DNA of 29,040 nt from a virus, in the IMG/VR virus record IMGVR_UViG_3300021246_000037, positions 1 through 29,040 of that record. One strand, written 5' to 3'. This document shows positions 840-25,719 of this stretch, one piece after another (positions within the stretch are counted from its first letter, which is position 1; each line of letters starts with the position of its first letter). Position numbers and translations under genes: made by a program. The notes beneath the pieces were generated by a model. The model was not told where the DNA came from and did no database searches. It was given only the letters and a program-made list of their open reading frames with translations.

Positions 840-842
840 TAT
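828..842 (+). repeat. Right junction copy of the TATGAA...TAATAT sequence flanking the HNH gene
   Basis: TATGAAAAATAATAT is the right-hand partner of TATGAATAATAT at 182-193. It contains the end of the HNH reading frame (TAA at 837-839) and the ATG at 829 of the 1218-aa virion gene. It would let the inserted gene replace the upstream stop while preserving the downstream start. Confidence 0.4.
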
Positions 843-4485: not shown

Positions 4486-4500
4486 CTATTTTAATTATAA

Positions 4501-4545
4501 AGAATTACCAGTATTTATTATAAGTATTGGTAGTTCTAATTTTTT
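4501..4545 (+). terminator. Rho-independent terminator
   Basis: Bases 4501-4516 (AGAATTACCAGTATTT) pair with 4522-4537 (AAGTATTGGTAGTTCT) over 16 positions around a 5-base loop, followed by T's at 4540-4545. Three of the pairs are G-U wobbles in the + strand RNA and would be A-C mismatches in the other strand, so the hairpin is built for the + transcript. It lies right after the 1218-aa gene. Confidence 0.85.
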
Positions 4546-4557
4546 CTATTAAATTTG
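4527..4557 (+). promoter_or_regulatory. Candidate Bacteroidota-type promoter for the giant-gene operon
   Basis: TAAATTTG at 4550-4557 fits the Bacteroidota -7 element TAnnTTTG. TTG at 4527-4529 lies 20 bases upstream and can serve as the -33 element; it is inside the right arm of the terminator hairpin. Transcription would start near 4562-4565, leaving a leader of about 35 bases before the ATG at 4598. A small hairpin GCATG/CATGC (4564-4568 with 4576-4580) would then sit at the very 5' end of the mRNA. Not tested experimentally; AT-rich DNA makes chance matches common. Confidence 0.55.
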
Positions 4558-4597
4558 CTAATGGCATGTGACAAGCATGCAATAAAATAAAAAGATT

Positions 4598-7173: not shown

Positions 7174-10100
7174 ATGCCAGATTTTGATAAGTTATTAAAT
7201 CCTATCATTAAAGAAAATAACACATCTCTTCCTGAAATTAACATTCAAGAAGCAAAAAGATATTCTTCTATACAATTTCCAGATTATAATGATAACATTG
7301 TATCAGGAACACCTAATAACGAAGACTTAGAAAGTAAAGCTGAATTATTTGCAAGCATGCCTGCTGATAAACTGAAAGGTATGCCTGTTGGATATGATGT
7401 GCTAGCTGCAAATCAAAGATATGATGCTTATAATCCATTATTGAAAAGTAATGAAGATTTTGCTGCCTATGGTCAAGGGTGGGGATCTAAAATGGTTAAT
7501 GGTGTTTCTAAAGGATTATTACTTACAGGAACAACTTTTTTACAAGGTACTGTAGGACTTGTTAATGGTTTAGTACAATGGGGGAAAGATGGAAGATTTG
7601 CATCTTTTTATGATAATGATTTCAATAGAAACTTAGATAAAATATTAAAAGAGGCTGAAGACAATGCTCCCAACTACTACACTGATATAGAAAAAAATGC
7701 TAAGTGGTATTCTCCTGATTATTTTATGACAGGAAACTTCTTATGGGATGGAGTTGTAAAAAATTTAGGATTTGCTGCTGGAGCTTATTTAACAGGAGGA
7801 GTTTATTCTGCTGGATTAAAAGGACTTGCAGCTCTTCCAGGAGCTGCTAGATTATTATCTATGGGTAGAGCTGCTGAAGCAGTTGCTGCATCTGAAGAAG
7901 CTTTATTAGCAGTGGATAAAGGAACTGAAGCTTATGGTAAGATAAAAGCATTATCTGATTCATATTTAAGAACTTACAATGTTCTTGATAAAGGACATAG
8001 AGCTGTTGTTGCTGGTTTATCTACTAGTGGTGAAGCTGGATTTGAAGCATATCAAAATCTTAATTCATTTAGAGAAGGGAAAATACAAGAATACAAAAAT
8101 ACACATGGTGGTGCTGAACCAACAGGTTCTGCTCTTGAAAAAATTAATAGAGCTGCTGATGATGTAGGTAATGCTTCCTTTTTAGGAAACGTTGTTCTTC
8201 TCACTGCAACTAACTATATTCAATTTCCAAAAATATTAGGAAGTTCTTATAAAGCAGAAAAAGGAATTATAAATAATGTCACTAGAGAAATAGAAGATAT
8301 AACTACAGATGCTGCAGGTAAGTATGTTGTAAAATCTCCTAAGAGTAAAATATTAAACACTTTAAATAAAATAAGACCTTACACCTTTTCTGCATCAGAA
8401 GCTTTTGAAGAGGGAGCGCAGTTTTCAATTGGTGTAGGTGCGAATGATTATTATAATAAAAAATATAATAATGAAGCCACTAGTTGGTTAGATGCTGTAT
8501 ATACAGGAATTACAGAAGGATTTTTATCTGATGAAGGAGCTAAAAATGTTTTAATAGGAGGATTGTCTGGTGCAATAATGATGGGGAAAAGTAGATTCCA
8601 AGAAGCAAAAGAAAAATCATTAAATACAGCAACAGCAGTTAAACAATTTAGTGAATATCAATTATCTGATTTTACTAAAGAAACAAAAGACTCTGTTAAT
8701 AGAGGAACTGTTCTACAACAAGAAAGAGAACAATTATTAAAAGAAGGAAACATCACTGAAAGTAAAGATAAAGAAACAGATTATGTTATTAACTATCTAA
8801 CACCAAGAATTAAATTTGGAAGATTTGATTTAGTTAAATCAGATATTGATGATTTAAGAACTCTTGCTACAAGTGACTTTAATCAATTAGTAAAAGAAGG
8901 AAAAGCTCTTCCTACTGATACCAAAGAAGGATATTTAAAAAGACTGAATGAGTTTGAACAAACTGCTAATAATGTAAAATCGTTATATCAAACTTTGAAT
9001 TTACGTTATAGTGGTCAAGTAGATGAACAAAAAAATCCTATATATACATCTGCTGTAATTGATAAAATGGTATATGCTGCAACTAAAATTTCAGACTATG
9101 AGCAAAGAATACCTTCTTTAACAAGTAAACTAGTAGGAAGTGTAGATAACATAGCTGAAATTTTACAAGATGTTTCTGAAGGAAATTTAGATACGTTCAA
9201 TGCTGCTATTGCTAATCTTGAAGCAAGTGATTTTGTTAATAAAGAAGAACTTGTTGAAGCATTAGATGATTCTGCTTTTATGACTGCTAAAAGAAAATTT
9301 CTTTTAAAGCAATATAGTGATATAAAAAACAATCCAGAAAAATATAAAGAAAAGAAACGTACTGATATAAGTGAAGAAGATCAAGATCTTGGAACAGTTA
9401 AAATTAAAACTAAAGATGGAGAATCTGATTATGTTATAGGAAAAAAATATTTCTTAGGAGAAGTTATAGAATATACAAAAGATGGACAGCCTGTATTTAA
9501 AACTCCTACAGTTAAAATTTTAGGAAAAAATGAAGATGGTACTATACAGATGTATGATGTTAAAACCAAAGAAACATTTAGTGTATCTCCAGAGAAATTA
9601 GAATCTTATAATTTACAAGGATTAGAAGAAACTCTTGCTAACCCTCTTGCAAAATTTACAATAAAAAATAGAAATAAATTATTTCAACACAAAGGATTTA
9701 AAGATAAAGATGGTAATCCTGTACAAGGTAGAGTTAGATATAATGCTGAAAAAGATACGTTAGAGTTTTATTACACTGATGCTAGGGGTAAAGAAAGAAG
9801 TAAACCTGTTACTACAAAACAATTTGAAAAGCAAAAAGGGTTTTCTTTACCAATGATTGAGGCTCTTGAAAAATATGATTCTGAAACACAAACATCAATT
9901 AGAGAACTTCTTGAAGCTTTAGCTACAGACAATGCTGCTCAATATAGAGAAAGTGTTGAAGCAAGAAATAAGATTATAAAAGATCTTTATGAAGATGCTG
10001 TAGAACAAGTTGAATCTATTAATAATAAACTTCAAGCTAATAAAGAAAAGATTCAAAAAATTGCTCAAGAAATAGATGATCTTAAATTAACAAAAACAGG

Positions 10101-13100
10101 TAAGCCTAGAGCTAGAATTAGTAAAACTTTACAGAAAACTTTAGATTCTTTAGCAAAACTTAGAGAAGATATTCAGTTAGAAAATGAAGTGTTGTTAGAT
10201 AGAAAAGCTGATCTTGAATATAACATTCCTTACTTTGAATCTTTAATTGAAGAATATAAAGACTTTCAAGGAGGTAGTCAAGATTTTATTGATCAATTAA
10301 ATAATGATCTTAAAGTGTTAAGTGATTTATATGATGTAACTGATAAAGCTATTACTGACAATAAAAAAATGACAGAACTTATTGATGAGTTATATAAAAA
10401 AGCATTAGAAGGTTTCAATGAATATATTGATAATTTAAGAGCTAGTGTAAAGAGAACAGATAATGTAGTTGTTCCTTTATACTTAGATGAGTTACAAGAG
10501 AGAGTTGAAAAAATGCTAGGAGAGGAAGGAGCTAAATATTACATTGCTAATAAAGAAGGCCTCACTGAACTTGTTTCTAGTTTACAAGATGCTATATATG
10601 ATTATCAAGAAAAGCATGATCTTCCAGAACTAACAAGAAAGGTGGAAGCTCTTCCTAGAGAATTAGAAGAACTTATACAAGGATTGGATGATCTTGTAAA
10701 TAGATATATTGCTACTGGTAAAGTGTTAGATAAGTTCCAATCTTTTGTAGAAGAACAAAATCGTTTAGAAGAAGAGCAAAGAGCTATGGCTACTAACAAA
10801 GAGCGCAAAGCAGAACTCGAAGCAACTAAAGATGTAAAGGCTATACAAAACAAAAGACAAGGAGGGAAGTATGAACCAGTTGCTAAAAAACCAAGTCAAG
10901 TAATTGGTAGAGCTACAATGGCTCCTAATACAGGAAAACCACATCAAGTTAGAGCAAATAACTTTGGAGCAAGATTAGATAGTCTTCCTGAAGGATCTGT
11001 ATATGGTGTATATATTACAAAGAATAATCAGGATGAAAAGATTCCTGGGTTAATGGATCATTTAAGAACAAATGAAAGAGGTAATATAGATGATAGCATA
11101 GACACTGATTCTACAGTGGCTTTATTAATGGTTAATGAAGAAGGTATTCCTGTAGATGAATTTGGGCAAACAATTAGTAATCCAGCAGATTATATTAGCA
11201 AAGGTATATACCAAGTATTTGCTGATGATAAACTTACGTGGGATGCTAAGTGGAGCAAAGATGGCAAGACTGAGGAGAGCATGTTTAGAAAAGGTACTCC
11301 TGAAAATATTGAAAAAGCAGTCAGAAAAGCATATGCTGAGTGGAAAGAAAGTGTTTTAAAATCAAAAGAAATAGGACAGCTACATACTATAGCAGCTTCT
11401 TTTGGTATTCCTCAATATGTGTTAGATGAAAACAATGAACCTGACTATAATACTAGAACTAGTGCTCAAGATGCAGGATTAGTATCTGCACAAGATCTTG
11501 AAACAAAGATAGTGTTGAGAGTTCCAAAAACAGAAGCAGAAGGTTCTCAAGGATTAACATCTTATGAAAGTGCTACAGGTAAAGTGTTTATACAATTACC
11601 AAATGCAATTGTTCCTGTACAAAATAGAAAGCATACAGAAGAAGAAGCCTCATCAATATTTGATGCATTGGTTAAACTAGCTGAATATGCTAATGATATA
11701 TATCAGGATATGAAAGATCCTGAACCTACACGTATATTAGAATATTTAAAATCTGTTGTTTATTGGGGTATTCCTTTGGATGCTCAAGGTAATAAAAAAC
11801 CTGCTGGGTACAATAGTATATTCTTTGAGACTGATCAAAAAACTGGTGCACTTAAATTAACAATCTCTAAAGAAGGGTTAGACTTCACATTCACTCCAAC
11901 AGAACTATTAAGAAATAAAAATTCTGTTATAGAAAAAATCATGAACATTTATGGGAATGTTAATTCTCAATTGCTTGATGATATTAATCGTGAGTATGAG
12001 CAAATAATTTCTATATCAGAAGATGGTCAAGTTGAATCTATAAAATGGCAAAACTACCAAACATATCTTCTATCTAATACATCACCAACAGGTGAAACTA
12101 GAGATACACCATTATCTATAGCAATGAGACCTTTGAATGATGCAGAAGATGTAAATAGATCTGGTATATACTTCTATACAACAGACAATGCTGATGATTA
12201 TGCATTTGCTGAAACTAAGAAAGCTGCTAAAAAAACTAGTAAAAAAAGAGCTCCAGTCAATACAAAAAAATCTACACGTAAAAAACCTACATCTAAGAAA
12301 CCAGCACCAAAGAAAGCTTCGAAAGAGGAAGAGGAAGAAATAGATAACACTGACATAGATCCAGATGGAGAAACTATTAACACATTTACATTTCCTGATG
12401 GAAAGAAAATTAGTTATGTAGTTCATCCTAATATATTAAATATGAAAGGTAAGGGTGTTATCATCCTTAAAGATGAAGAAGACTACGATGCTGTTGTTGA
12501 GAAAATTGGTGCTAATCCTGCAAACAAAGGTAAGAATGCTGAACAGCTTTTATTAAGAACTATTACAAAACATGCAACAACTGTTCTTGAAACTAGAGAG
12601 GAAGAAACAGTTGAAGAAGAAGAAGGTGATGAAGATTTTGACACCTTGTTCACTAAAGGAGTAACAGTTGGTAAAACAACTCCTAAATCTAAAAAATCTT
12701 TAAAAGAAGAAGAAGGAGAAGAAGCACCTGTTAGTAATAACTTAAAAAAGTTAATGGATGCTGCAAAGAATGAAGATGAAGATGAAGAAGCATTGCGTGA
12801 AAAAATATTAAATTCTGTTGATGAAATTGAAACAGAAGATTGGAATAGTATAGAAGAGTTTATTAAAAAAGTTCTTCCTATAATTCCTTTCTATAGAGTT
12901 AAAAATTTAATCAAAGCTACTAATGGAAGACAAGCTTATGGTATGTTTAAAGATGCTGCAGTTTATGTATATGAAAATGCAGAGGTTGGAACAACATACC
13001 ACGAAGTATTCCATGCTGTTTGGAGAATGTTTACATCTCCACAAGAACAACAAGCAATCCTTAATGAATTAAGAAATAGAAAAGGAACTTTCTTTGATAG

Positions 13101-16100
13101 AAAATCAAGAACAGATATTTCTTTTTCTGATGCTACAGATATTCAATTAGAAGAACATTTAGCAGAGCAGTTTAGAGATTATGTACAAGAAGGAAAAGTT
13201 CCTAGTAAACCAGCTGAAGGAAAACCTTTTATAGTAAAACTATTTGCTGATCTTGTTAAGTTCATTAAAGAAATGTTCTTGGGACCAAATGCTCAAAGTA
13301 ATACAGATAAACTATTTGAAAAAATAACATCAGGATATTTTGCTAAAGCAACTCCTTATGCTGCAGAATTATCTTTTGCTAATAAAGGATTTATTGAAAT
13401 AAATGAAGTTACAGATACAGAAGGTGCTCAATTTAGTGAAGTGGTTAGACTGTCAGATAAGATACGTCATGAAGTTATAGAACATATGACTTACTCTACA
13501 TTATTAAAATTAACTGAGAATGATGCTAGTTTATTTCAAGATCCTAAAATATCTAAATTAGATTTATATGATGGATTAAAACAAGACATTTTAACTAGGA
13601 TAGCTAAAGATGCTGTTGTTGTAGAAAAATTATATAATGAAGAGAAAATAGGAAAGAGAGTTAGAAATGAAGAACTACAAAGAATTGATGGTCTCACTAC
13701 AGAAATACAAGAAGGTTGGGATTCTATTGTAGATCAATATGAAGACTATCTAAGAGGATATAATGTAGAGTTTGATGAAAATGATAATATACAACTTAAT
13801 GATGACAACATCGTTAAAGAAAGTGATAAGTTTGATGCAACTAAAATAGATGCATTTAAAAAAGCAAACAGAGCTATTAAACTTTTACTTTCTACAGTTC
13901 CTTATTTAAATGAAAAAGGTAAACTAGATAAGTCTTCTATCAATGGAGCTAGACTTATTCCTGTAAGTCAAGTTAATATTACATTATTAAATACGTTATC
14001 AGACGCAAGAAATATAGATGAGATGTTAGAGAAACTAAAAACTCTAGCAAAGAATGATCCTAATTATAAAACATTATATAAACGTATCACTAAGAAAGAC
14101 GTTATTGAAGATGGACTTGCTTTAAACAAAGTTAAAACAAGAGGTAATTTACAATTGATCAGTTCTATATGGTCATTGTTTAAAAAATATAATTCTACAG
14201 TTAAAGTGGTAAGTGTCCTTGAGAATGGTGAAGTTATTCTTAAGAATGCATTTCTATCTAATGCTGCAGAGCAATTAAGACAAACCTATCTTAATTCTAT
14301 TACAACATCAGCTAAATCAGGAAAAGGATTGTTTAAATATTCTCCAAAAGCCAAAGGTTATTTTGTTAATAGAAAGAAATTAAATGACACTAGTTTAGTT
14401 TCAAAAACAGGAATGGTTAAATTCTTAAACGAATTGGGCGTTACATTCACTGTTAGTGAATTAAACAGATTAGAAATAGAAAATCCTAAAGAATATGCAA
14501 AGTTTAAATCAGCTGTAGGAGGATTAAAAAGTAGTCTTTATTCAATAGGTAAGGTTTCTTCATTCTATATGTCCACTCTATCTATAGGTAATAGACTTTA
14601 CGAACTTGCAGAGATTAAAAGTTTAGTTAGTAATCCAGAAACAGATAGTACATTTTACAATATCAATGGAGAAATGACTCAGAGTTATATTGGTCCTAAT
14701 GCAGCAAGTCAATTGTTTGAAACATTAGATCAAATAAATGCATTAACTGCAGAAGAGTTATCTACCACTCCTCAATTCTCTTATTTGTTATCAGATTCAT
14801 TTGTAAAAGGATCTACTATTCTTAAAAAACTATTTGCATCAAACTTTGCTAAAAAAGAATCTAAATCAGAAACTCCATTATTTACTGTTGGTTATGTTGG
14901 AGGATTTGAAAACAATATGACAGGTAAGAAAAAACAATCTTCTAAATTAAATTATAAAGATAGATTGTTACAAGAACTCAATCTTAACATCAAAGGATGG
15001 TTTTTAAACCTTGTTCCTGGAGATGCTTCTATTGAACATATGATTTATATGGGCAATGAGTTTGATTACAAGATGTTATCAACTGGAATGGGTGCTATAC
15101 ATAAAGTGTTTAAAGATTATTTCCTTTCAGAATTAGCTGTATCTCAAGAAAAAGACAGACCTTTTGTAGAAGCTGAAGGAAGAAAACGTACAGATTTACG
15201 TTTCTTTAAATCTATATTAGCTAATACAAAAGAATCTGAAGAGGATAAAAGAAATAAACTTCATGATGCAATTGTTGAATATGCTAAGACAAATTCTTTT
15301 GAAGAAACATATTCAAAATTTGAGAAACAAATAAATAGTGCAATTGATAATTATATATCTACTAGTTCAGAAAGCTTAAAAGAAACACTAGAATCTTATG
15401 GATTAATTGGTGTAAATGATTTTGGAAAATTAACAATCCAAAATACAATGTTCCCTAAAGGAATGTCTGAGAAAGAGATGGGCTTACAGTTAAAAGTTGT
15501 CACTGCTAACTACATGGTTTCTAATATTGAGATGCATAAGCTTCTTTATTCTGATCCATATCAATATGCAGATGAGTTAAAGAGAACTAAAAGTTTTAAC
15601 TCTCCTAGACAATTAATAATTGGTGGAAAAGATTCTATTAATCAATTGTTCAATGCAATTTGGAATAAAGGATTCAAAAAAGGAGATATAGGATATACAG
15701 ATTTCACAAGAGGTTATTTTAGAACAGTGACACATCAAGATGTTATTGGAGAAATAGATCTTCCAGGATATGAACCTTATACTGAAACAGATGGTGCAGG
15801 TATTATATCTTATCCTGCATATCGTCATTTTAGAATTAGAGCAGCACAATGGTCTGATGGAGATGAGAGACAATATAAATATGAAATGGCTTGGGAGAAG
15901 CAAGACAAAGCAATGAAAGCTGAGAAAGCAGGTGATAAAAAACTTGCTGATGAGTTATATGATTCTCTTTCTTTAGAAGAAATACAAATATTAGATGCAG
16001 GAAATCCTAAAGTGCAATCAGCATTTACAGACTTAAAACCTATTGTGTCTGGTAACAAAGCAGATGGTAATACATTCAATGATGTTGTCTTAGACAAGTT

Positions 16101-19100
16101 TGCATTATATCCACTATCTTATAGATTAATGAGTGAATTAAATCCTAATTCAAATGCTGTTAAGCTGTATAATAAAATGCAAAATGAAAATGTAGATTAT
16201 ATAGTGTTTAATTCAGGAAGAAAGGTGGGAGCAATGAATGATCATCCAACATATGATTCTGAAGGAAACTTTAATAATGCTGCTTATATAGCTAAAGGTA
16301 AGAAAAGAAATATAATAAATGTTCCTTTTGAAATAATGTCTGTTCAATCAGAAGTTCCTTCTAAAGAAAAAGATGAAATTAAAAGAGCAACACAAGTTAC
16401 AAAACTTGTTACATTAGATACATTAGAAGCAGGAATTCCAACAGACTTTATGACTGATGAAACTTTTGAGAATAGATATGAAGCTTGGTATAATTTAGAT
16501 GAGAATGCTAAAAAAGAAGCATCTCCTTTATTTAAAGAAATACAAAACAATCAAGCTCTTCTTGAATCTATTATTAATAAAGGATATAATAACTTATTAA
16601 AATCATTAGGGATACAAGAAACAATCACTACATCTAAAGAAGGTGTAAAAACTAAAGCATTTAAAATTGTTAATTTTTCTTCAGCTGCTACCACTTTACG
16701 TAATGAGATTTTAAAAAGACACGTTAATAGTAATATTATAATGGCTTTAAATGATTTCATTAAAGGTGAATCAGTGCTAGAAGCTACACCAGCATACCAA
16801 CAAATCAGAAACATTCTATATTCTATTGCTGATAGAGAAGTTATTTCTGGAAAAATAACAGGAGGTATGAAGGTGCAAATTTCTTCTACAATGTTAGAAG
16901 AAAATAAAATCAAGCCTATCACTAGAAAAATAAAAGGTAAGAATACGTTAGTGTTTCAATCTGATGTCTTAGATTTTTATTCTATGAAAGAAGGAGATAA
17001 AGAAATCAATGTATGTCAAATGATGGTGGGAAGATGGTTTAAGAGTCCTCTATCAGATAAAGATCTTTTAGACTATTTAAATAATACACCTGAAGGACAA
17101 GAGATACTTAAAGGATTTGCATATCGTATTCCTACACAGAAACAAAACTCTATTGACGTATTCAAAATAAAACAATTTCTTCTTGAAGAGTTCAAAGACT
17201 CTGTTGTAGTTCCTTCTGCTTTAGTTGCTAAGGTGGGATCAGATTTTGATATTGATAAACTTTCTATGTATTTTAAAAATGTAAAAGTTAATAGTAAAGG
17301 TTATCCTCAACTAATTAAATTTACAACAGGTGAAGAAACTTTAAAAGATCGTTACTATGACTGGGTATTGGAAAATTCTAATAGAGATACAAAGAATTAT
17401 ATCCAATGGTTGGCTAAACCTTCAGTGAAAGAAATCAAAGAAAAATTCAATGATTTAAGAAATCAAATTAAAGATAAATACAAAGGAGATATTAGAATAA
17501 AAAGAGAAGAGCTTTATAATTCATACCAAGAGAATATATCTGTAGCAAAAGAAAAGCTTACAGATCAAGAATTATATATCAAAGAATTATTTGCTGAATC
17601 TTCAACAGTGTTCTTTAATCTTCCTCAAGAAGAAATAGATGATTATTTTAATTTAAAAAATGAATTACGATTAAGAGGATTGGATGGTCCTGTAGAATTA
17701 GAAAACTATTTAGGACTAACATTATTAAAAATACAATCTTCAGAAAATGCTGAAGTGATTGATACATTAAATGATCTTGCTGAATATTACAAACAGCAAC
17801 TAGTGGCTATTGGTGCAAAACAAGAGTATGTAAATACTATTACAAAAGATGCACTAGCTATGTTTAAACAAGATAAAAATATTTCATTATCACAAATCAC
17901 TTCAAAAATGAACATTATTAGAGATGAAGTTGAAGAAAGATATGGAATAGAAATGATGAGTAATAATTTAGAAGTTGCTAAAGAGATAGCAGAAACTGAT
18001 GAATTACCTACATTGGAAGAATTTTCTAAACTATCAGAGTATGAGCAAAACACTAGAAAAGCTGTTGAGAATGCATATATAAAATCATTGCAAGACATTA
18101 CAGTACATAAGTCTAATTATGCAAGGTTGATTCAACCTAACTCTGCAGAGGATATGAAATCTCTTTCTAAAAAAATTGCTACAAAAGTTTCAGGAAGTAC
18201 ATTCAATTACAAAGATGCAGGAAACATGTTAAACAGAATGTTTATGTCTTCTCTAAGACATGCATTTGTTACAGGTAAGTATGCTATTGGTATTGCTGCT
18301 GTGAATCAAACTAATCATTCCTTAAATCAAAGACAGTTAGTTTATATAGATAAAAGAAAATTAGCTGATGTTGATGAAAAAGATGCATTATGGTTAGCTG
18401 ATGCTTCTATACATTTTAGAAACTACAATTCTGTAGTGACAAAAGATAAAGGAAGCGTAGCTACATTATCAAAAATTAGAAATGCTGAAAGAAGTAAAAA
18501 GTTTCCAAATGGTCAAGACATCTCTGATATCATTGGACAATTTATAGATGGATATGTAGATATCTCTAAGGGGCCTTGGATTATGGAATTAGGAGCAACA
18601 CCTAACGTAGCTTCTACTTGGTTGTTTTTAGTTAAGATAGGAGTTCCTATTAATGAGATTGCCTACTTTATGAATCAACCTATCATAAGAGATTATTTAA
18701 AATCAATTGAGAAAGCTGGGTATTCTTATTTATTCATGCCTAAGTTTGTTACAAGCATGCTAAATGAATACAATCCTAAAAAAGAATTAGATGCTAAAAA
18801 ACTATTTAACGATAGAAAAGGATATAGAATTCCAAGTGAATCTGAACTTGAAGGAATGTTAGGAAAAACTACTAGTGAGTTAACTAGAGCTGAAAAATAC
18901 AATCAACAAATGATCTTGTTAGAGTTTATGAAATATGCTAAACTAGGAGAACAATTGTTTCACGTAACACAAGGAACTAACTTTGATACATCCAACTTTA
19001 ATGATCCTTATCTTGTTTGGAAGAAATCAAAACAATTAGAGAAAGCTCGTAAGACAGTGATATCTGATGTTGATGAAATTCTTGATAATTCCTTCTTAGG

Positions 19101-20565
19101 AGATTTACAAGACAAAATTGGAGATTTTAGAAATGCTCTTTCTGAAATATTAAAATCAGATAAACGTAGAACTAGAACTATTATACAAAAAGTTCTTGAA
19201 CCTTACGTTGATACTAATGATAATGATTTTGTTAAACTTTCTCGTAAAGCTGTAAATGATTTCTTTGATTGGGCAGTACAATGTAAATCAGGAAATGAAT
19301 CTATCAATAAAGATATTGCTAGAATATTATTAGAAGAAGGTGGAATTGGTGAGGAAGTTATAAGTTTTGTTAAATCTGTAAAAAGAAATCCAGAACATCC
19401 TCTTCATGATAATGAAATAATTAATATTATTGAAGTGGTTCCTTCTAAGTTATCTGGAGAAGGTCATCCTACTAATATTAAAATTAAGGGGTTAGATAAC
19501 AAAGTATATGATCAAAATAATATCATATTTGCTTTTAGAGAACTTCGTGATTATTTAAAAGGACAAAAGAAATCAGAGTCTAATATATATGACAAACTAA
19601 AACTATTGGCAGTTTTACAATCTGGATTATCCACTTCTCCTATATCGTTCACTAATCTTATTCCTTATGAAGATTTTTCAGAAATATATGGTAAAGTGTT
19701 AGATAGATTAGAGGAGCTACCTAACATGGAAGATTTCTATAACCTAGGAGTGTTCCAAAGAAACAATTGGAATAATGATGACATTGTTCCAACTAAAGCA
19801 GCTATTAAAACATTCATGGGAGTATATAATCCAGCAATGAAGTATTTACCAAAGAATGTAAAAGCTGAAGTTGAAAAAGGAAATATTCCTCCAGTGGTAT
19901 CTATATCTACATTATCTCCAGAAGGTAAAAGCGAATACATTGTATATACATGGAAAGAAATACCTAAAGGGAAAAAAGAATCTCAGATGAGAGAAGAAGG
20001 TGATTTCTCTTTCTTGAAAAAAGGATTGTTTAAGAAGATGTATGATATTAGAGATTTAGAATATATACAGTCATCAAATGACAAAGACTATTTTGTTTAC
20101 AAAGCTGTTAATGCTTGGGGAGATGGATTTAGAGCTCAAGAATTCTATGATGAAGCTCGTGAATCAGTTATAGAGAATGGATTTATTAAAGTTGAAGAAA
20201 CACCAGACAGTGTAGTTATAAATACATTTGGTAAAACTGGTAAGAAAAGTTTAGGTGATAAGTTAAAGGATGCTTCTAAAAGTAAACGTAAACTTCAACA
20301 AAATTTATTTGAACAAAAAGATGAAGATATTCCATTATCAGATGTAGATGATTCTTCAGACGATAAACTTTTTTCACAAATTAATAATGTAAATGTTCTA
20401 TCTTTACAATTGAAAGATGGAAACACATATTTAGTTAGTGATATAACAAATCAAATGATGACAGATATGGGATATACACCTTCAGAAATTGGTAAATTTA
20501 TAAAACAATATAGAAATAGTCCTGAAGGTTTACCAAGTATTAATAGAACTAGTAAAAAATGTTAA
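7174..20565 (+). CDS. Giant virion RNA polymerase of crAss-like type fused to a zincin metallopeptidase
   Basis: A 4463-aa protein with several regions. Residues about 1-560 hold hydrophobic segments (110-129, 196-225, 315-330, 460-470) that could touch or cross membranes. About 900-1240 is coiled-coil-like. Residues 1682-1717 are a Lys/Arg/Ala/Pro tract followed by Glu-rich stretches to about 1876. HEVFH (1943-1947) with LEEHLAEQF (1992-2000) marks a zincin protease. The polymerase core follows. IVFNSGRKVGA (K3017) and TQVTK (K3077) are candidate beta-type active-site lysines. YRIPTQ (3317-3322) matches the RxPT of beta-prime, and GSDFDIDKLSM has the three metal-binding aspartates of the DxDxD motif at 3357, 3359 and 3361. 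TGKYAIGIAAVNQTNHS (3700-3716) and YVDISKGPW (3794-3802) are further motifs I recall from this family. Known family members are packaged and transcribe early genes after injection. The metallopeptidase suggests processing of the giant chain, which is inference. The C-terminus meets the next gene in the same frame after TAA-GCT. Confidence 0.85.
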   Translation: MPDFDKLLNPIIKENNTSLPEINIQEAKRYSSIQFPDYNDNIVSGTPNNEDLESKAELFASMPADKLKGMPVGYDVLAANQRYDAYNPLLKSNEDFAAYGQGWGSKMVNGVSKGLLLTGTTFLQGTVGLVNGLVQWGKDGRFASFYDNDFNRNLDKILKEAEDNAPNYYTDIEKNAKWYSPDYFMTGNFLWDGVVKNLGFAAGAYLTGGVYSAGLKGLAALPGAARLLSMGRAAEAVAASEEALLAVDKGTEAYGKIKALSDSYLRTYNVLDKGHRAVVAGLSTSGEAGFEAYQNLNSFREGKIQEYKNTHGGAEPTGSALEKINRAADDVGNASFLGNVVLLTATNYIQFPKILGSSYKAEKGIINNVTREIEDITTDAAGKYVVKSPKSKILNTLNKIRPYTFSASEAFEEGAQFSIGVGANDYYNKKYNNEATSWLDAVYTGITEGFLSDEGAKNVLIGGLSGAIMMGKSRFQEAKEKSLNTATAVKQFSEYQLSDFTKETKDSVNRGTVLQQEREQLLKEGNITESKDKETDYVINYLTPRIKFGRFDLVKSDIDDLRTLATSDFNQLVKEGKALPTDTKEGYLKRLNEFEQTANNVKSLYQTLNLRYSGQVDEQKNPIYTSAVIDKMVYAATKISDYEQRIPSLTSKLVGSVDNIAEILQDVSEGNLDTFNAAIANLEASDFVNKEELVEALDDSAFMTAKRKFLLKQYSDIKNNPEKYKEKKRTDISEEDQDLGTVKIKTKDGESDYVIGKKYFLGEVIEYTKDGQPVFKTPTVKILGKNEDGTIQMYDVKTKETFSVSPEKLESYNLQGLEETLANPLAKFTIKNRNKLFQHKGFKDKDGNPVQGRVRYNAEKDTLEFYYTDARGKERSKPVTTKQFEKQKGFSLPMIEALEKYDSETQTSIRELLEALATDNAAQYRESVEARNKIIKDLYEDAVEQVESINNKLQANKEKIQKIAQEIDDLKLTKTGKPRARISKTLQKTLDSLAKLREDIQLENEVLLDRKADLEYNIPYFESLIEEYKDFQGGSQDFIDQLNNDLKVLSDLYDVTDKAITDNKKMTELIDELYKKALEGFNEYIDNLRASVKRTDNVVVPLYLDELQERVEKMLGEEGAKYYIANKEGLTELVSSLQDAIYDYQEKHDLPELTRKVEALPRELEELIQGLDDLVNRYIATGKVLDKFQSFVEEQNRLEEEQRAMATNKERKAELEATKDVKAIQNKRQGGKYEPVAKKPSQVIGRATMAPNTGKPHQVRANNFGARLDSLPEGSVYGVYITKNNQDEKIPGLMDHLRTNERGNIDDSIDTDSTVALLMVNEEGIPVDEFGQTISNPADYISKGIYQVFADDKLTWDAKWSKDGKTEESMFRKGTPENIEKAVRKAYAEWKESVLKSKEIGQLHTIAASFGIPQYVLDENNEPDYNTRTSAQDAGLVSAQDLETKIVLRVPKTEAEGSQGLTSYESATGKVFIQLPNAIVPVQNRKHTEEEASSIFDALVKLAEYANDIYQDMKDPEPTRILEYLKSVVYWGIPLDAQGNKKPAGYNSIFFETDQKTGALKLTISKEGLDFTFTPTELLRNKNSVIEKIMNIYGNVNSQLLDDINREYEQIISISEDGQVESIKWQNYQTYLLSNTSPTGETRDTPLSIAMRPLNDAEDVNRSGIYFYTTDNADDYAFAETKKAAKKTSKKRAPVNTKKSTRKKPTSKKPAPKKASKEEEEEIDNTDIDPDGETINTFTFPDGKKISYVVHPNILNMKGKGVIILKDEEDYDAVVEKIGANPANKGKNAEQLLLRTITKHATTVLETREEETVEEEEGDEDFDTLFTKGVTVGKTTPKSKKSLKEEEGEEAPVSNNLKKLMDAAKNEDEDEEALREKILNSVDEIETEDWNSIEEFIKKVLPIIPFYRVKNLIKATNGRQAYGMFKDAAVYVYENAEVGTTYHEVFHAVWRMFTSPQEQQAILNELRNRKGTFFDRKSRTDISFSDATDIQLEEHLAEQFRDYVQEGKVPSKPAEGKPFIVKLFADLVKFIKEMFLGPNAQSNTDKLFEKITSGYFAKATPYAAELSFANKGFIEINEVTDTEGAQFSEVVRLSDKIRHEVIEHMTYSTLLKLTENDASLFQDPKISKLDLYDGLKQDILTRIAKDAVVVEKLYNEEKIGKRVRNEELQRIDGLTTEIQEGWDSIVDQYEDYLRGYNVEFDENDNIQLNDDNIVKESDKFDATKIDAFKKANRAIKLLLSTVPYLNEKGKLDKSSINGARLIPVSQVNITLLNTLSDARNIDEMLEKLKTLAKNDPNYKTLYKRITKKDVIEDGLALNKVKTRGNLQLISSIWSLFKKYNSTVKVVSVLENGEVILKNAFLSNAAEQLRQTYLNSITTSAKSGKGLFKYSPKAKGYFVNRKKLNDTSLVSKTGMVKFLNELGVTFTVSELNRLEIENPKEYAKFKSAVGGLKSSLYSIGKVSSFYMSTLSIGNRLYELAEIKSLVSNPETDSTFYNINGEMTQSYIGPNAASQLFETLDQINALTAEELSTTPQFSYLLSDSFVKGSTILKKLFASNFAKKESKSETPLFTVGYVGGFENNMTGKKKQSSKLNYKDRLLQELNLNIKGWFLNLVPGDASIEHMIYMGNEFDYKMLSTGMGAIHKVFKDYFLSELAVSQEKDRPFVEAEGRKRTDLRFFKSILANTKESEEDKRNKLHDAIVEYAKTNSFEETYSKFEKQINSAIDNYISTSSESLKETLESYGLIGVNDFGKLTIQNTMFPKGMSEKEMGLQLKVVTANYMVSNIEMHKLLYSDPYQYADELKRTKSFNSPRQLIIGGKDSINQLFNAIWNKGFKKGDIGYTDFTRGYFRTVTHQDVIGEIDLPGYEPYTETDGAGIISYPAYRHFRIRAAQWSDGDERQYKYEMAWEKQDKAMKAEKAGDKKLADELYDSLSLEEIQILDAGNPKVQSAFTDLKPIVSGNKADGNTFNDVVLDKFALYPLSYRLMSELNPNSNAVKLYNKMQNENVDYIVFNSGRKVGAMNDHPTYDSEGNFNNAAYIAKGKKRNIINVPFEIMSVQSEVPSKEKDEIKRATQVTKLVTLDTLEAGIPTDFMTDETFENRYEAWYNLDENAKKEASPLFKEIQNNQALLESIINKGYNNLLKSLGIQETITTSKEGVKTKAFKIVNFSSAATTLRNEILKRHVNSNIIMALNDFIKGESVLEATPAYQQIRNILYSIADREVISGKITGGMKVQISSTMLEENKIKPITRKIKGKNTLVFQSDVLDFYSMKEGDKEINVCQMMVGRWFKSPLSDKDLLDYLNNTPEGQEILKGFAYRIPTQKQNSIDVFKIKQFLLEEFKDSVVVPSALVAKVGSDFDIDKLSMYFKNVKVNSKGYPQLIKFTTGEETLKDRYYDWVLENSNRDTKNYIQWLAKPSVKEIKEKFNDLRNQIKDKYKGDIRIKREELYNSYQENISVAKEKLTDQELYIKELFAESSTVFFNLPQEEIDDYFNLKNELRLRGLDGPVELENYLGLTLLKIQSSENAEVIDTLNDLAEYYKQQLVAIGAKQEYVNTITKDALAMFKQDKNISLSQITSKMNIIRDEVEERYGIEMMSNNLEVAKEIAETDELPTLEEFSKLSEYEQNTRKAVENAYIKSLQDITVHKSNYARLIQPNSAEDMKSLSKKIATKVSGSTFNYKDAGNMLNRMFMSSLRHAFVTGKYAIGIAAVNQTNHSLNQRQLVYIDKRKLADVDEKDALWLADASIHFRNYNSVVTKDKGSVATLSKIRNAERSKKFPNGQDISDIIGQFIDGYVDISKGPWIMELGATPNVASTWLFLVKIGVPINEIAYFMNQPIIRDYLKSIEKAGYSYLFMPKFVTSMLNEYNPKKELDAKKLFNDRKGYRIPSESELEGMLGKTTSELTRAEKYNQQMILLEFMKYAKLGEQLFHVTQGTNFDTSNFNDPYLVWKKSKQLEKARKTVISDVDEILDNSFLGDLQDKIGDFRNALSEILKSDKRRTRTIIQKVLEPYVDTNDNDFVKLSRKAVNDFFDWAVQCKSGNESINKDIARILLEEGGIGEEVISFVKSVKRNPEHPLHDNEIINIIEVVPSKLSGEGHPTNIKIKGLDNKVYDQNNIIFAFRELRDYLKGQKKSESNIYDKLKLLAVLQSGLSTSPISFTNLIPYEDFSEIYGKVLDRLEELPNMEDFYNLGVFQRNNWNNDDIVPTKAAIKTFMGVYNPAMKYLPKNVKAEVEKGNIPPVVSISTLSPEGKSEYIVYTWKEIPKGKKESQMREEGDFSFLKKGLFKKMYDIRDLEYIQSSNDKDYFVYKAVNAWGDGFRAQEFYDEARESVIENGFIKVEETPDSVVINTFGKTGKKSLGDKLKDASKSKRKLQQNLFEQKDEDIPLSDVDDSSDDKLFSQINNVNVLSLQLKDGNTYLVSDITNQMMTDMGYTPSEIGKFIKQYRNSPEGLPSINRTSKKC

Positions 20566-20568
20566 GCT

Positions 20569-23500
20569 ATGCCTTGTAAAATTCAAATAAAAGAAAATAT
20601 TACTCAAGATATTGAAAACAAAACAGATTATGCTTTTAATAAATCTTTAAAAGATGCACAAGATATTGCTAGAGATGTTAATGCAGAGTATGGTATAAGC
20701 ATTGTAAAATTTGTACAAAGTGCTTCAGATTTTATAGATAGGATAATTAATATTCCTCAAGATCTTATTGATAGATATTATAATCATGAACTATCTCTTG
20801 AGGAAGAAGATGCTCGTAAAGCTCAACAAGAAGACGCTGAAAGGACTGGTGAAGAATACAAAGATGATTACATGTTTCAAAAAGAAACTGAAGAACTTCC
20901 ATCATCTAGAGCATCAGAAGAAACTTTAAATAAAGTGAAAGCACTTATTGCTAAAATGGGTGTTAAAATACAAGACCTTCAAGACTATCTAAAAGGAAAC
21001 CCTGATGTAAATACAACTGATGTAAATGGTTTAGCTGATCTTGTAAGAGGTATTGTTGCCATTGCTGAAGGTAAAGAAGAGGTAGCTCTTACAGAAGAGA
21101 TGGTACACATTGCTACAGCTATTATAGAGAAGGTAGATCCAAAGTTTGTAACAGAAATGATTTCTAAAATAGACAGATTTGCTATTTATAAAAAAGTTCT
21201 TAATGCTTATAAAGACGATAAGAACTATCAACTACCTAATGGAAAACCTGACATTAGAAAGATTAAAAAGGAAGCTGTAGATAAACTTATAGTTGAACTT
21301 ATAATCAATAAGTCTGAGGGCTCTGTAGAGTTTCCTGAACTAATGGAAGAACTTCCTAGAACAATGATTCAAAAAATATGGAATGCTATTCTTGATTTCT
21401 TTTCAGGAAGATATAGAAAAGCTAACATAGATATATTTGAGCAAGTAACAGAAAGAATTTTAGAAGGAGAAGTTGAGAACATTGAAAACATTTCTGATAT
21501 GGAAGGAATTTTTCTTCAGAAGAAATCTTCTAAACTATCTGAAAAACAAAAAGAATTACAAGAACTAATTCTTGATACAAAAGATAGAATCAAAAAGAGA
21601 GAGAGTAAAGAAAAGGTTGATCCTTTATTAGCAGATAGTGAAGAAGCTTCTAATTTTTATGTAGAATTAGAAACTAATGGCAATGAAAGAAAAATTACCA
21701 AACGTGTTACTGATAGAGTTAAAGCTTGGTATGAACAAAGATTTGGAAAGAATAAAAAGTTTACTAAAGAAGAAGAGTTCATTAATGACTTCAAAAGAGA
21801 CAATGGTATAAAGTATCATTTCTATTTTGAAGACATACATGATAGATATTTTAAAGAAGATGGAACTAGAAGAGAAACTCCTCTTTCTAGAACTGTAGAT
21901 GTGGTTGGTTCTGATGAAGAAATCTATGAAAGACTTGAGCAATATTATGTTGATTTAGTTAAGAAGTTTTCTGAAGGTAAAAAGAATCCTTTAGTATTCT
22001 CAGAAGTAGTTGTATATGATCCTAAAGAACAAGAAGCTGGAACCATTGACCTTTTAATAATAGAAGAGAATGGTAAAGCTAATATATTTGATTGGAAATT
22101 TATGACTGTATCTGCCACTGCAGAAGATGTAGCTTGGTATAAACAAGGAGCATATAATATACAACTTGGAAGATATAAAGATATACTAAGAGATTCTTAT
22201 GGGGTGAAAGAGTTTGGACAGATGCGAGCTATTCCTATACTAATGGATGTTAAACGTAAGAATTGGAGAAATCCAGATTCTGATTTAGTAGTTAAAGGAA
22301 TTGAGATTGGTTCTGTAAATGTTAGTAAAATAAAAGATTTTACATTAGTTCCTGTTTCAGAAGAAACTGAATCAACTGGTAATGAGGAATTAGATGAAGC
22401 AATTACACAATTAAATGCAGTGTTAAAACAAGTAGGGAAAGAAGATGTCACTAATGAAGATGAGAAAAGATTCAAAGGTGAAAGAATGAATGCTCTTTCT
22501 AAAGCTATACGTGCTGCACAAAGTGCTAATAATCTTGTTCCATTGATTCAAGTAATTAAATTGATGCGAAAAGAAGGGCAAAATTTAATCAATGATTGGG
22601 AAACAATTTATAATAAAAAAGCAGCTTCTGCTGATGATATAAATGATGCACAACTTTCTGAATATGCAGATAGCCTTAGAGAGTATATGGCCATATCACA
22701 AGTTTTTGGCTCTATGAATGACTTAATAGGAAATTTAATATATGATAAGTCTGAAATAAAAAATGCTAAAACTGATAAACAAAAAGAAGATTTAGCTAGA
22801 CGTAAAGCTTATTTAGAAAATATAGACAATGAAGCAAAACTTATTCGTCTATCTTCTAAAAAGGTAGAAAAGATCACTGGAAAGTTTGCAGATAAGTTTA
22901 TGGGAGAAAGAAATCTTGTACAAGGTTTATTATCTCCACAAGCTGTTTGGTCTGGAATAGGTTCTTTCTTTAGAGGGGCATCAGAGGTTCCTTTACCTTC
23001 TGTTAGTATATTGTTTAAATTAGTTACAAACGCTAAGGGTAGAGCTAGAAGAGATGCATTGAAAGAAGTAGAAGAGTTAATGGCTATCAGAAAAAGAATA
23101 ACTGATAAAGGAGGAGATGTTAGAAAGTATATACAACAACTGTATCAAAAAGATGATAAGAATAAATTAGTTAATAAAATTATATATAAATATAAAAAAG
23201 AATTTACTGATCTAGTTGATAAAAATGCTGCTGAAGAATTCCCTAGTAAAGAATGGTTATACAATAATATAGATAGAGAAGGTTATCAAAAAGAAGCAAA
23301 TGAAGTTTTAGAAAAAAGAATAGAAAGACTTAAACGAATCTATTCTGAAGATAAGGAAATGATGAACAAACTTATTCTTCAAGAAAAAAGAATGTTTGAT
23401 GTTACTAGAAATGATTTTACAGGTTGGAATAATTATATCATCAAGAGAAATCCTGCAAGGTCTATAGACAAAAATGGAATTGAAACTTCTCCATGGTTAT

Positions 23501-25719
23501 CAGATGAATATAAAAATATTCAAAATGATAAAGAACTTCTTGATTTATATAATTTTTTAATTAAAACAAATAAAAAAGCATCTGATGTTGGTTATTTAGA
23601 AAACAAAGTTCATTCTACATTTCTACCATTTGTTAGAAAATCAATGGCTGAAAGTCTTGCATGGGATTTTTCTCTTTCTTCTATAATGAATTTTGGTAAT
23701 GGATTATCTCTACAAGCAGATGATATTGGTTTTGGTAATGTAAATGAATTAACAGGTGAAATACAACATAGTATACCAAAGTATTACACTTCAGATTTTT
23801 CAATGAAAAAAGATGAAGCAGGTAACACTATACATGACTATACAGATGTAAGTGAAGACTTGTTTAAGAATATGATTTTATATATAAATCATATGCACAA
23901 CTATAAATATCTTTCTGAAGTTGAAGGTCAAGCACAGCTTATTAAAACTGTTGAGGGTTTTAAAAAACATTTAGCTACAACAAGATCAGGAGATGTTATA
24001 ATAAAACCTAATGGTGAGCCAGAAGAATTAAAAGGGAATGAACAAAATACTAAAATATTTGATGACTTCCTAAGAGCTTTATTGTATGAGCAAAAGTATC
24101 CTCTTTCTGATACAGATACTTCTATAAGCACAGGTCTTGTAAAACAAATGAAAAAACTTATAAATGGTGTTTCAAAAGCTGCAGGAGGTAAAGAAGTTTT
24201 TACAGATCTTGATAAACCTAGTGCCACTTCTTTGTTTAAATCAATGGATAGTTTAAATAGAGCTTTTCAATTAAAAACATTAGGATTGGACATTGTATCA
24301 GGAGCAGTGAATTTATTTGGTGCAAACATTCAAGTTATTACACAGGCAGGTAATTATTTTACTAAATGGGATTATTTTAAAAACTTCAATGGTTTAATAG
24401 GAAGTAGATTTAAAAACGATGATGATCGTAAAATGTTTTTAAAATTAATAGACACTTTCATGCCTCTTAAAGATGATCCTACATATGACAAATTAAAAGA
24501 AGCAGGGCTATCAAAAATAACTCAACAAAACTTTTCTGATTGGTTAATGTTATTTATGAGAGAACCTGAACAACATGTTGAGAAATCTATATTTCTAACT
24601 CTATTAGATAATTCAATGATTGTTGATGGAAAAATTGTTAACATTAGAGAATTTGTAAAAAGTAAATATAAAGATAGATGGAACTCTGCAAGTGATTATG
24701 CAGGTTCATCTAAAAAAATAGAAGATGAAATAAAAGAATTAAAGAGTACAAGTTCTATAACTAATACAATGAAGTTAGAAAATGATGAACTTGTTATTCC
24801 TGGTCTTGATTTAAACAATTTTAAAGAAATTGATAGAGTTACAAAGCTTAGTAGACGTATTTCTAGAAATGCAGTGGGGGGTATGTCAGATTCTGATATA
24901 AATAGAATGTCAATGAGTGTTTGGGGAAGATCTATGATGGTATTTAAGAACTGGATTCCTAAACTTCTTGATACACGTTTTGGAGAATTAAGAAAAATAT
25001 CAGATGATTTCTCTGTAACAATAGATGAAAATGGTTTAACTGAAGGGGAGAAATATGATATTGGTAGAGTTAGGCTTTGGTGGGGAGTGTTAGCATCTTC
25101 TATAAATGATAAAAGTTTTAATGTTTTAAATATATTACAAGTTAATGATAAGGGTCTTCTTTTATTAGATAAAATGTATATAGATTATAAAGCATCTTAT
25201 GAGAAAAGAACAGGTGAAAAATTTACCATGACAAAAGAAGATTTCAATGAAATGATTAGAACAAATTTAAGAAATCAAGTACAGGAGTTAACAATGCTAC
25301 TTATTTTATTTGGTTTAAAATTATCTATGGGAATGTTACCTCCTGATGATGATGAAGATAGAGCTAGTAAGAACTTTTTTAGATATTCTCAAAGAGTTGT
25401 AGATAAATTTGTTGGAGAGCTTTCATTCTTTTATAATCCATTAGAAGCAGAACATCTTTTAAGTGGTTCAATGTTCCCTGCAATTGGAGTTTTCTCAGAT
25501 GTAATAAAGTTCACTTCACATTTTTCTAGTCAAGTTTTAGGTTTTGAAATATCTGATCCAACTCTATCTGAAGAAGATGTTAGAAAGAAAGCACAGCCTG
25601 TTAAATATTTAGCTAAAATGTTACCTGTAACAAAATCGTTAATTACATATGGAGCTATATTTAATGATGACTTTGCTAAAGAATTTGATATTACAATACA
25701 GAAAAATAATAATAGATAA
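20569..25719 (+). CDS. Giant virion-associated protein with degenerate zincin and PD-(D/E)XK nuclease domains
   Basis: A 1716-aa protein, probably packaged with the polymerase. The N-terminal part (about 140-300) reads like the zincin of the preceding giant protein, but HExxH has become EEMVH (176-180), so zinc peptidase activity is probably lost. The tail WNAILDFFSG...DIFEQVTERILEGE (271-301) parallels the zincin tail there. A PD-(D/E)XK nuclease centre of RecB/Cas4 type follows: E479 in FSEVVVYD, D494 in GTIDLL, D508 and K510 in IFDWK, then QLGRY (532-536). The remaining 1150 residues are mostly helical with hydrophobic stretches (about 1238-1264 and 1570-1590) and conserved-looking MVFKNWIPKLLDTRFGEL. 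The start MPCKIQIKENIT sits one codon past the stop of the upstream gene, in the same frame, suggesting termination-reinitiation. The nuclease target could be host DNA, phage DNA ends or RNA; the sequence does not say. Confidence 0.75.
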   Translation: MPCKIQIKENITQDIENKTDYAFNKSLKDAQDIARDVNAEYGISIVKFVQSASDFIDRIINIPQDLIDRYYNHELSLEEEDARKAQQEDAERTGEEYKDDYMFQKETEELPSSRASEETLNKVKALIAKMGVKIQDLQDYLKGNPDVNTTDVNGLADLVRGIVAIAEGKEEVALTEEMVHIATAIIEKVDPKFVTEMISKIDRFAIYKKVLNAYKDDKNYQLPNGKPDIRKIKKEAVDKLIVELIINKSEGSVEFPELMEELPRTMIQKIWNAILDFFSGRYRKANIDIFEQVTERILEGEVENIENISDMEGIFLQKKSSKLSEKQKELQELILDTKDRIKKRESKEKVDPLLADSEEASNFYVELETNGNERKITKRVTDRVKAWYEQRFGKNKKFTKEEEFINDFKRDNGIKYHFYFEDIHDRYFKEDGTRRETPLSRTVDVVGSDEEIYERLEQYYVDLVKKFSEGKKNPLVFSEVVVYDPKEQEAGTIDLLIIEENGKANIFDWKFMTVSATAEDVAWYKQGAYNIQLGRYKDILRDSYGVKEFGQMRAIPILMDVKRKNWRNPDSDLVVKGIEIGSVNVSKIKDFTLVPVSEETESTGNEELDEAITQLNAVLKQVGKEDVTNEDEKRFKGERMNALSKAIRAAQSANNLVPLIQVIKLMRKEGQNLINDWETIYNKKAASADDINDAQLSEYADSLREYMAISQVFGSMNDLIGNLIYDKSEIKNAKTDKQKEDLARRKAYLENIDNEAKLIRLSSKKVEKITGKFADKFMGERNLVQGLLSPQAVWSGIGSFFRGASEVPLPSVSILFKLVTNAKGRARRDALKEVEELMAIRKRITDKGGDVRKYIQQLYQKDDKNKLVNKIIYKYKKEFTDLVDKNAAEEFPSKEWLYNNIDREGYQKEANEVLEKRIERLKRIYSEDKEMMNKLILQEKRMFDVTRNDFTGWNNYIIKRNPARSIDKNGIETSPWLSDEYKNIQNDKELLDLYNFLIKTNKKASDVGYLENKVHSTFLPFVRKSMAESLAWDFSLSSIMNFGNGLSLQADDIGFGNVNELTGEIQHSIPKYYTSDFSMKKDEAGNTIHDYTDVSEDLFKNMILYINHMHNYKYLSEVEGQAQLIKTVEGFKKHLATTRSGDVIIKPNGEPEELKGNEQNTKIFDDFLRALLYEQKYPLSDTDTSISTGLVKQMKKLINGVSKAAGGKEVFTDLDKPSATSLFKSMDSLNRAFQLKTLGLDIVSGAVNLFGANIQVITQAGNYFTKWDYFKNFNGLIGSRFKNDDDRKMFLKLIDTFMPLKDDPTYDKLKEAGLSKITQQNFSDWLMLFMREPEQHVEKSIFLTLLDNSMIVDGKIVNIREFVKSKYKDRWNSASDYAGSSKKIEDEIKELKSTSSITNTMKLENDELVIPGLDLNNFKEIDRVTKLSRRISRNAVGGMSDSDINRMSMSVWGRSMMVFKNWIPKLLDTRFGELRKISDDFSVTIDENGLTEGEKYDIGRVRLWWGVLASSINDKSFNVLNILQVNDKGLLLLDKMYIDYKASYEKRTGEKFTMTKEDFNEMIRTNLRNQVQELTMLLILFGLKLSMGMLPPDDDEDRASKNFFRYSQRVVDKFVGELSFFYNPLEAEHLLSGSMFPAIGVFSDVIKFTSHFSSQVLGFEISDPTLSEEDVRKKAQPVKYLAKMLPVTKSLITYGAIFNDDFAKEFDITIQKNNNR

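What the first reader, a model, noticed from the sequence alone, without database searches (positions are those of the whole stretch)
21094..21471. The next giant protein carries what looks like a dead copy of the same zincin
Around residues 140-301 of the 1716-aa protein the sequence follows the same plan as the active zincin. There is a hydrophobic lead (LADLVRGIVAIAEG), then TEEMVH where the other has YHEVFH. About 110 residues after the motif (about 100 in the other copy), both have an aromatic helix (WNAILDFFSG versus ADLVKFIKEMFLG) and DxFExxTxxxxxG-like endings (DIFEQVTERILEGE versus DKLFEKITSGYF). The first zinc-binding His is Glu. An active and a pseudo-protease in adjacent co-injected proteins suggests a regulatory, scaffold or dimer-partner role for the inactive copy.
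Basis: partly seen in the sequence, partly recalled or inferred. Interest (0 to 1): 0.7.

Follow-up and report, generated by a model that had tools for sequence, protein, structure and literature searches.

The report
Rewired metal site in phage cargo
A protein that a crAss-like phage probably injects with its RNA polymerase carries a protease-like domain in which one metal-binding histidine is a glutamate, and relatives keep the rest of the site so strictly that it is probably a rewired working site, not a dead copy.

Summary
Residues about 110-306 of the 1716-aa protein form a zincin-fold domain related to the HExxH domain of the neighbouring 4463-aa protein. The first zinc-ligand His is Glu (E176-E177-x-x-H180, with E235 as the expected third ligand). 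'Dead copy' does not hold. In 94 non-redundant relatives the site residues are among the six most conserved of 201 columns: 86 are EExxH+E and 5 HExxH. Copies that lose the second His also lose the third Glu, which is what real decay looks like. The supposedly active partner is odd too: 60 of 86 relatives have HExxE and 26 HExxH, never a third residue there, with at least 8 switches on its own tree although each needs two base changes. So two related domains in adjacent, probably co-injected RNA-polymerase-associated proteins show reciprocal His-to-Glu ligand swaps. I favour a retained but rewired metal site (one His, two carboxylates), perhaps Mn/Fe/Co-using and hydrolytic, over a scaffold-only pseudoprotease. 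Metal binding and activity are untested. It is a new variant of a known kind: the 1716-aa protein is the counterpart of crAss001 gp49, a virion cargo protein.

The parts
20569..25719 (+). 1716-aa ORF, counterpart of the crassvirus virion RNA-polymerase-associated protein (crAss001 gp49, phi14:2 g065)
   Evidence: tblastn to cr108_1 (C-terminal part 9e-6), cr108_1 to crAss001 (3e-8), shared N-terminal domain
20896..21486 (+). zincin-fold domain with altered ligand (residues about 110-306)
   Evidence: HMM survey; AlphaFold model; structure matches
21094..21108 (+). EExxH motif, E176-E177-M-V-H180 (first zinc-ligand His replaced by Glu)
21226..21228 (+). Y220, most conserved residue of the domain (88 of 89); possible catalytic-type Tyr (inference)
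21271..21273 (+). E235, expected third metal ligand on the second helix
   Evidence: invariant in A8; 90 of 94; in helix 142-163 of the model
21739..22266 (+). PD-(D/E)XK-like nuclease segment of the same protein (residues 391-566)
   Evidence: phrog_298 exonuclease, E=1.3e-4; GTIDLL 491 and DWKFM 508
7174..20565 (+). 4463-aa ORF: paralogous zincin plus two-barrel RNA polymerase core
   Evidence: RNAP core profile matches 6vr4, 3e-127
12838..13353 (+). paralogous zincin domain (residues about 1889-2060)
13000..13014 (+). HEVFH motif H1943-H1947 (HExxE in most relatives)
13153..13155 (+). E1994, third metal ligand of the large-protein zincin
   Evidence: 85 of 86
17242..17256 (+). DFDID motif of the RNA polymerase

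Best explanation
[quoted passage not shown] The site (E176, H180, E235, with E177 as general base) most likely still binds a divalent metal, now through one His and two carboxylates, perhaps preferring Mn, Fe or Co to Zn. It probably still serves a hydrolytic or metal-structural task in the RNA-polymerase-associated protein that is packed in the virion and ejected with it, for example processing or ordering the giant cargo proteins as they refold in the host. Shown here: homology, fold prediction, the swap, its fixation, and reciprocal swaps in the paralogous domain. Inferred: virion delivery of this particular protein, metal binding, chemistry, substrate.
For: E177, H180 and E235 are the only invariant columns in 78 aligned sequences and E176 is nearly so; in 94 non-redundant copies they rank 2, 3, 5 and 6 of 201 columns. 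The general base E177 is not a metal ligand, and a pure scaffold need not keep it. Position 1 is E or H in every copy that keeps the second His (91 primary copies plus the L121 second copy). Where the second His is lost, so is the third Glu: 0 of 6 such copies keep it (L061, cr111, L057, and second copies in L066, L068, L139). HExxH at the same place in L005, L014, L015, cr1 and phi14:2 ties the site to true zincins. In the paralog the second ligand is E in 60 and H in 26 of 86, nothing else; codons are only GAA/GAG or CAT/CAC, so each exchange costs two base changes; at least 8 changes on the domain's own tree without motif columns (5 forced by starred branches) and 11 on the RNAP tree (7 forced). 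Precedents: CLCA1 is described as a zinc-dependent metalloprotease with HEXXE (PMC6851300 passage); EEXXH in place of HEXXH in the transporters ZIP8/ZIP14 is reported critical for Mn transport (PMC10457451 passage); ArdC, with a zincin domain, is stabilised by Ni, Mn or Co but not Zn (PMC7213743 passages).
Against: No metal, activity or substrate was measured. AlphaFold places no metal and I saw no coordinates, so ligand geometry is unchecked. Foldseek E-values against the PDB are weak (best 0.22) and VIA Z-scores stay under 8. Conservation can also reflect a structural hydrogen-bond network. cr111 keeps the domain with the whole site lost, so the fold can persist without it. 6 of 21 named phage loci examined show no such domain (cr116, p-crAss, crAss002, cr50, cr3, cr113). 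L057 has E at position 1 with the rest of the site broken.
Confidence: 0.55

Rival explanations
1. A conserved pseudoprotease: the domain no longer binds a catalytic metal and works as a docking, scaffold or regulatory module for the RNA polymerase or for the paralogous zincin of the 4463-aa protein; the charged residues form a structural network.
For: Loss of a canonical ligand; most phages keep both domains (85 loci with both seen, 83 of them EExxH plus HExxE or HExxH). Anthrax lethal factor is a fold-level precedent: the model matches both its catalytic part (601-776) and its N-terminal part (59-263); that the latter is a motif-less zincin fold used for docking is recalled, from no call.
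Against: Conservation of the general base and all other site residues; coupled loss of the site in real decays; HExxH/HExxE switching in the paralog; domain kept where no HExxH/HExxE partner was seen (DAC15, cr106).
Confidence: 0.35
2. A relic under no constraint (a simple dead copy).
For: One canonical ligand is missing; cr111 and the copies in L061, L066, L068 and L139 show that decay does happen.
Against: Site columns are among the most conserved of the domain over 94 diverse sequences, and EExxH is also found in phi17:2, outside Crassvirales in the record's taxonomy.
Confidence: 0.03
3. The two domains complement each other: EExxH in one protein and HExxE in the other form a joint or exchanged metal site at an interface.
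For: 59 of 85 loci with both domains carry exactly this reciprocal pair.
Against: 24 of 85 have EExxH with a full HExxH, this window among them; EExxH persists with no partner found in DAC15 and cr106; in known zincins the ligands come from one chain (general knowledge).
Confidence: 0.05

Closest known systems
Zincin-like metallopeptidase domains of phage and plasmid polyvalent proteins (Iyer et al. 2017, PMC5512222, section on peptidases read)
   Same: Core of one helix, three strands and two C-terminal helices, motif on the first and a Glu on the second; sits in giant co-injected proteins, including N4-type virion RNA polymerases.
   Different: That section describes HEXXH and HEXXXH forms; EExxH or HExxE are not mentioned in it. 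No Pfam or PHROGs family names these domains (Pfam both; PHROGs for the EExxH domain).
Crassvirus gp49-type RNA-polymerase-associated cargo protein (crAss001 gp49, phi14:2 g065, C-terminal part of p-crAss KP06_gp44)
   Same: Same protein family and gene neighbourhood; 12 of the 15 named phage loci that have the domain carry EExxH.
   Different: The window protein is longer and has a PD-(D/E)XK-like segment; phi14:2 and cr1 keep HExxH and cr111 lost the site.
Zincin of crAss001 gp47 / p-crAss KP06_gp45 (annotated 'RNAP associated protein fused to zincin protease')
   Same: Counterpart of the 4463-aa protein's zincin (crAss001 gp47; the p-crAss protein only by its annotation).
   Different: HExxH in crAss001; HExxE in most of the window's relatives.
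CLCA1 (HEXXE metalloprotease) and ZIP8/ZIP14 (EEXXH metal transporters)
   Same: His-to-Glu exchange in a zinc motif with metal use retained (PMC6851300, PMC10457451, passages).
   Different: No homology claimed: analogies of chemistry only.
Anthrax lethal factor, PPEP-1, IrrE/PprI (zincin fold, PDB)
   Same: Best structural matches of the model: Z 7.9, 6.2 and 6.2.
   Different: Different motif, 6-14% identity, unrelated biology; a fold-level likeness only.

Membership tests
Zincin-like metallopeptidase (HExxH + Glu) | Core fold: N-terminal helix, three strands, motif helix, Glu helix | tested here: met
   Model core pLDDT 87-95, order helix 30-42, strands 46-49/65-70/75-78, helix 83-102 with the motif, helix 142-163 with E235; matches to lethal factor, IrrE, PPEP-1
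Zincin-like metallopeptidase (HExxH + Glu) | HExxH motif with both zinc-ligand His | tested here: not met
   EEMVH here; HExxH in only 5 of 94 relatives at this place
Zincin-like metallopeptidase (HExxH + Glu) | General-base Glu in the motif | tested here: met
   E177: 92 of 94
Zincin-like metallopeptidase (HExxH + Glu) | Third ligand Glu on the next conserved helix | tested here: met
   E235: 90 of 94; invariant in A8
Zincin-like metallopeptidase (HExxH + Glu) | Zn-dependent peptidase activity | not testable with these tools
   needs protein
Dead copy (unconstrained pseudo-protease) | Relaxed constraint on the former site | tested here: not met
Crassvirus gp49-type cargo protein | Sequence homology and place next to the RNA polymerase gene | tested here: met
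Crassvirus gp49-type cargo protein | Presence in the virion | not testable with these tools
   Mass spectrometry exists for crAss001 gp49 (PMC10172136), not for this phage

The most novel reading that the evidence does not exclude
Crass-type phages carry a pair of cargo metallohydrolases whose metal sites were rewired from two His and one Glu to one His and two Glu in opposite ways (EExxH+E and HExxE+E), repeatedly and reversibly, giving enzymes that use Mn, Fe or Co and are tuned to metal supply in the host or held inactive in the virion until they refold in the cell.
Probability: 0.3. Interest if true: 0.82.

Novelty: new variant of a known kind. Interest (0 to 1): 0.6.

Why it matters
Substitution of a metal ligand is routinely read as proof of a dead enzyme. 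Here it is fixed across most relatives of a virion-delivered protein family and goes back and forth in a paralog, so the rule can be tested directly. It also gives the RNA-polymerase-associated protein of crassviruses, labelled only 'subunit' or 'unknown', a candidate biochemical function at its N-terminus.

Tried and rejected
Chance motif: rejected by conservation and profile tests with shuffles. Naming by Pfam, PHROGs or PDB sequence: no meaningful hit for the domain. Foldseek against the PDB with the large zincin gave no zincin that I recognise among the 50 rows shown; the second look by VIA listed PPEP-1, lethal factor and ArdC (Z 6.8, 6.7, 4.7), but that model is weaker (mean pLDDT 71.5). 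Relatives in bacterial genomes: 2 distant loci of the polymerase region, which served only as unlabelled rows of the tree. A search of viral contigs with the cr108 N-terminus found nothing. The masked test masked a wrong column for the third Glu; one search repeats it correctly. The Fisher value used a table typed by hand (92,0/0,6), counting cr1's Glu, shifted by one column, as kept; relatedness is ignored, so I do not use the p-value. One search read cr113 proteins in a wrong frame; one search covers all frames (no domain hit in L035). Paper searches that joined crassviruses with zincin found nothing; crAss-like with metalloprotease listed four papers, judged by title and abstract only; with metallopeptidase eight, of which two were opened for passages; with 'RNA polymerase' and 'protease domain' none. 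That is no proof that it is unpublished: the library lacks most subscription papers.

Full report
What is there. The window is a 29,040-base virus record. It codes for a 4463-aa protein (7174-20565) and, directly downstream, a 1716-aa protein (20569-25719), followed by a holin (Pfam 4.7e-11), an endolysin-like ORF (8e-29) and a homing-endonuclease-like ORF (6.1e-31). The large protein contains the two-barrel RNA polymerase core: a ten-sequence profile including the window matches PDB 6vr4 at 3e-127. The 1716-aa protein matches cr108_1 gp052 (C-terminal part, tblastn 9e-6; N-terminal part, 0.01), which matches crAss001 gp49 at 3e-8. crAss001 gp47, gp49 and gp50 were detected in virions by mass spectrometry as RNA-polymerase-associated cargo (PMC10172136, passages read). 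Co-injection of the window's proteins is inferred from this.

The domain. An AlphaFold model of residues 88-336 from 78 sequences has a confident core (pLDDT 87-95) in zincin order, with the EExxH motif on helix 83-102 and E235 on helix 142-163. Foldseek E-values against the PDB are weak (best 0.22), but the top rows are enriched in lethal factor and include IrrE; VIA puts lethal factor at 7.9, IrrE 6.2 and PPEP-1 6.2. All Z lie under 8, which the tool warns can be common; what counts is that most of the upper rows belong to one fold class. Among viral predicted structures the matches below its own family include a virion RNA polymerase protein (E 0.048) and several large polyvalent proteins.

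The relation to the neighbour. With EExxH sequences only (86) against the large zincin (101), hhalign scores 44.9, motif on motif; 60 shuffles reach at most 20.1, the reversed profile 27.3. With the motif and third Glu masked: 36.5; 100 shuffles at most 19.3; reversed 27.9. Two polymerase-core profiles give 17.9 and 12.7. The aligned stretch runs from the first helix to the motif helix. A profile of the large zincin did not retrieve the EExxH domains at 1e-4.

The survey. Domain copies were collected by an iterated profile at E<=1e-5. 118 primary copies reduce to 94 at 95% identity: EExxH with the third Glu 86, HExxH 5 (one of them, cr1, with the third-Glu column shifted in the alignment), and three broken: L061 QQ..E/K, cr111 DR..D/R, L057 EE..I/A. 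The window itself is represented there by L008, its own record. Four second copies: L121 EEAAH with Glu kept; L066 and L068 QQAGK and L139 GEAAY broken. So copies with the second His always have E or H first, and the 6 copies without it have all lost the third Glu. L061 carries a separate HEIIH zincin upstream in the same ORF, a hint that the site is released when another zincin is present. Of 21 named phage loci fetched, 15 have the domain: 12 EExxH (cr108, crAss001, cr128, cr112, bajarodcaudo, cr85, Dulem 41, DAC15, cr126, cr106, cr118, phi17:2), 2 HExxH (cr1, phi14:2), 1 lost (cr111); 6 have no hit. On a FastTree of the rest of the protein, position 1 needs at least 3 changes between H and E; long branches make the deep part unsure.

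The paralog. In 101 copies of the large zincin, 86 at 95% identity, position 1 is H 86 of 86, the general base E 86 of 86, the third ligand E 85 of 86, and the second ligand E in 60 and H in 26. The codons at that place are GAA/GAG or CAT/CAC only, two base changes apart. At least 8 changes are needed on the domain's tree without motif columns (5 forced by starred branches) and 11 on the polymerase tree (7 forced). The near neighbours L002 (HExxE) and L003 (HExxH) are 88% identical in the rest of the domain. Recombination of domains could account for some switches. In 85 loci with both domains seen, 59 are EExxH+HExxE, 24 EExxH+HExxH and 2 HExxH+HExxH, these two being near-identical contigs (ten re-fetched contigs left out before the count).

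Reading. A two-base exchange that always ends in Glu, and never in the one-base neighbours of His, together with strict retention of the general base and the other ligands, fits a metal site that accepts Glu as ligand. Nature has parallels: HEXXE in the zinc metalloprotease CLCA1 (PMC6851300, passage), EEXXH instead of HEXXH as a determinant of Mn transport in ZIP8/ZIP14 (PMC10457451, passage; PMC5661630, passage), and the plasmid protein ArdC with its zincin domain, stabilised by Ni, Mn or Co but not Zn (PMC7213743, passages). Polyvalent-protein zincins are proposed to process giant injected proteins (PMC5512222, section 8 read). I therefore rank 'rewired, probably metal-binding and perhaps hydrolytic' above 'scaffold pseudoprotease', and both far above 'dead relic'. 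DAC15 and cr106 keep EExxH without any HExxH/HExxE in ORFs of 250 aa or more of their loci, which weighs against a role only as partner of an active copy.

What is not shown: metal, activity, substrate, virion presence in this phage, and ligand geometry. The first-stage distances are slightly off (95 and 82 residues to the aromatic helix).

Noticed in passing
window 21739-22266: Residues 391-566 of the 1716-aa protein match a phage exonuclease family (phrog_298, 1.3e-4) with GTIDLL...DWKF, a PD-(D/E)XK-like signature; weak matches in L001 and L002 too. A nuclease inside an RNA-polymerase-associated cargo protein is unexpected.
   Followed up: partly
L061:1147-3624; L066:13764-20651; L068:8536-15459; L121:13932-20609; L139:13899-20444: Tandem copies of the zincin domain at the N-terminus of the gp49-type protein or just upstream; in L066, L068, L139 and L061 one copy has lost its site, in L121 both are EExxH.
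   Followed up: partly
L016:12484-23774 (crAss001 gp50, gp49): The DFDxD polymerase motif lies in gp50, not gp49, while PMC10172136 calls the protein with a solved structure a homologue of gp49; a numbering slip seems possible.
   Followed up: partly
L022:10535-14410 (cr111): Domain kept, all site residues replaced (DRYVD, third Glu to Arg): a natural true pseudo-zincin for comparison.
   Followed up: partly
window 27507-28181 and 183-839: A GIY-YIG/homing-endonuclease-like ORF and an endonuclease VII/HNH-like ORF flank the cargo and lysis genes.
   Followed up: no
window 829-7156: Two large ORFs (1218 and 852 aa) upstream of the cargo proteins without a significant family; by gene order they may be the muzzle and C1/C2-type cargo genes (inference).
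   Followed up: no
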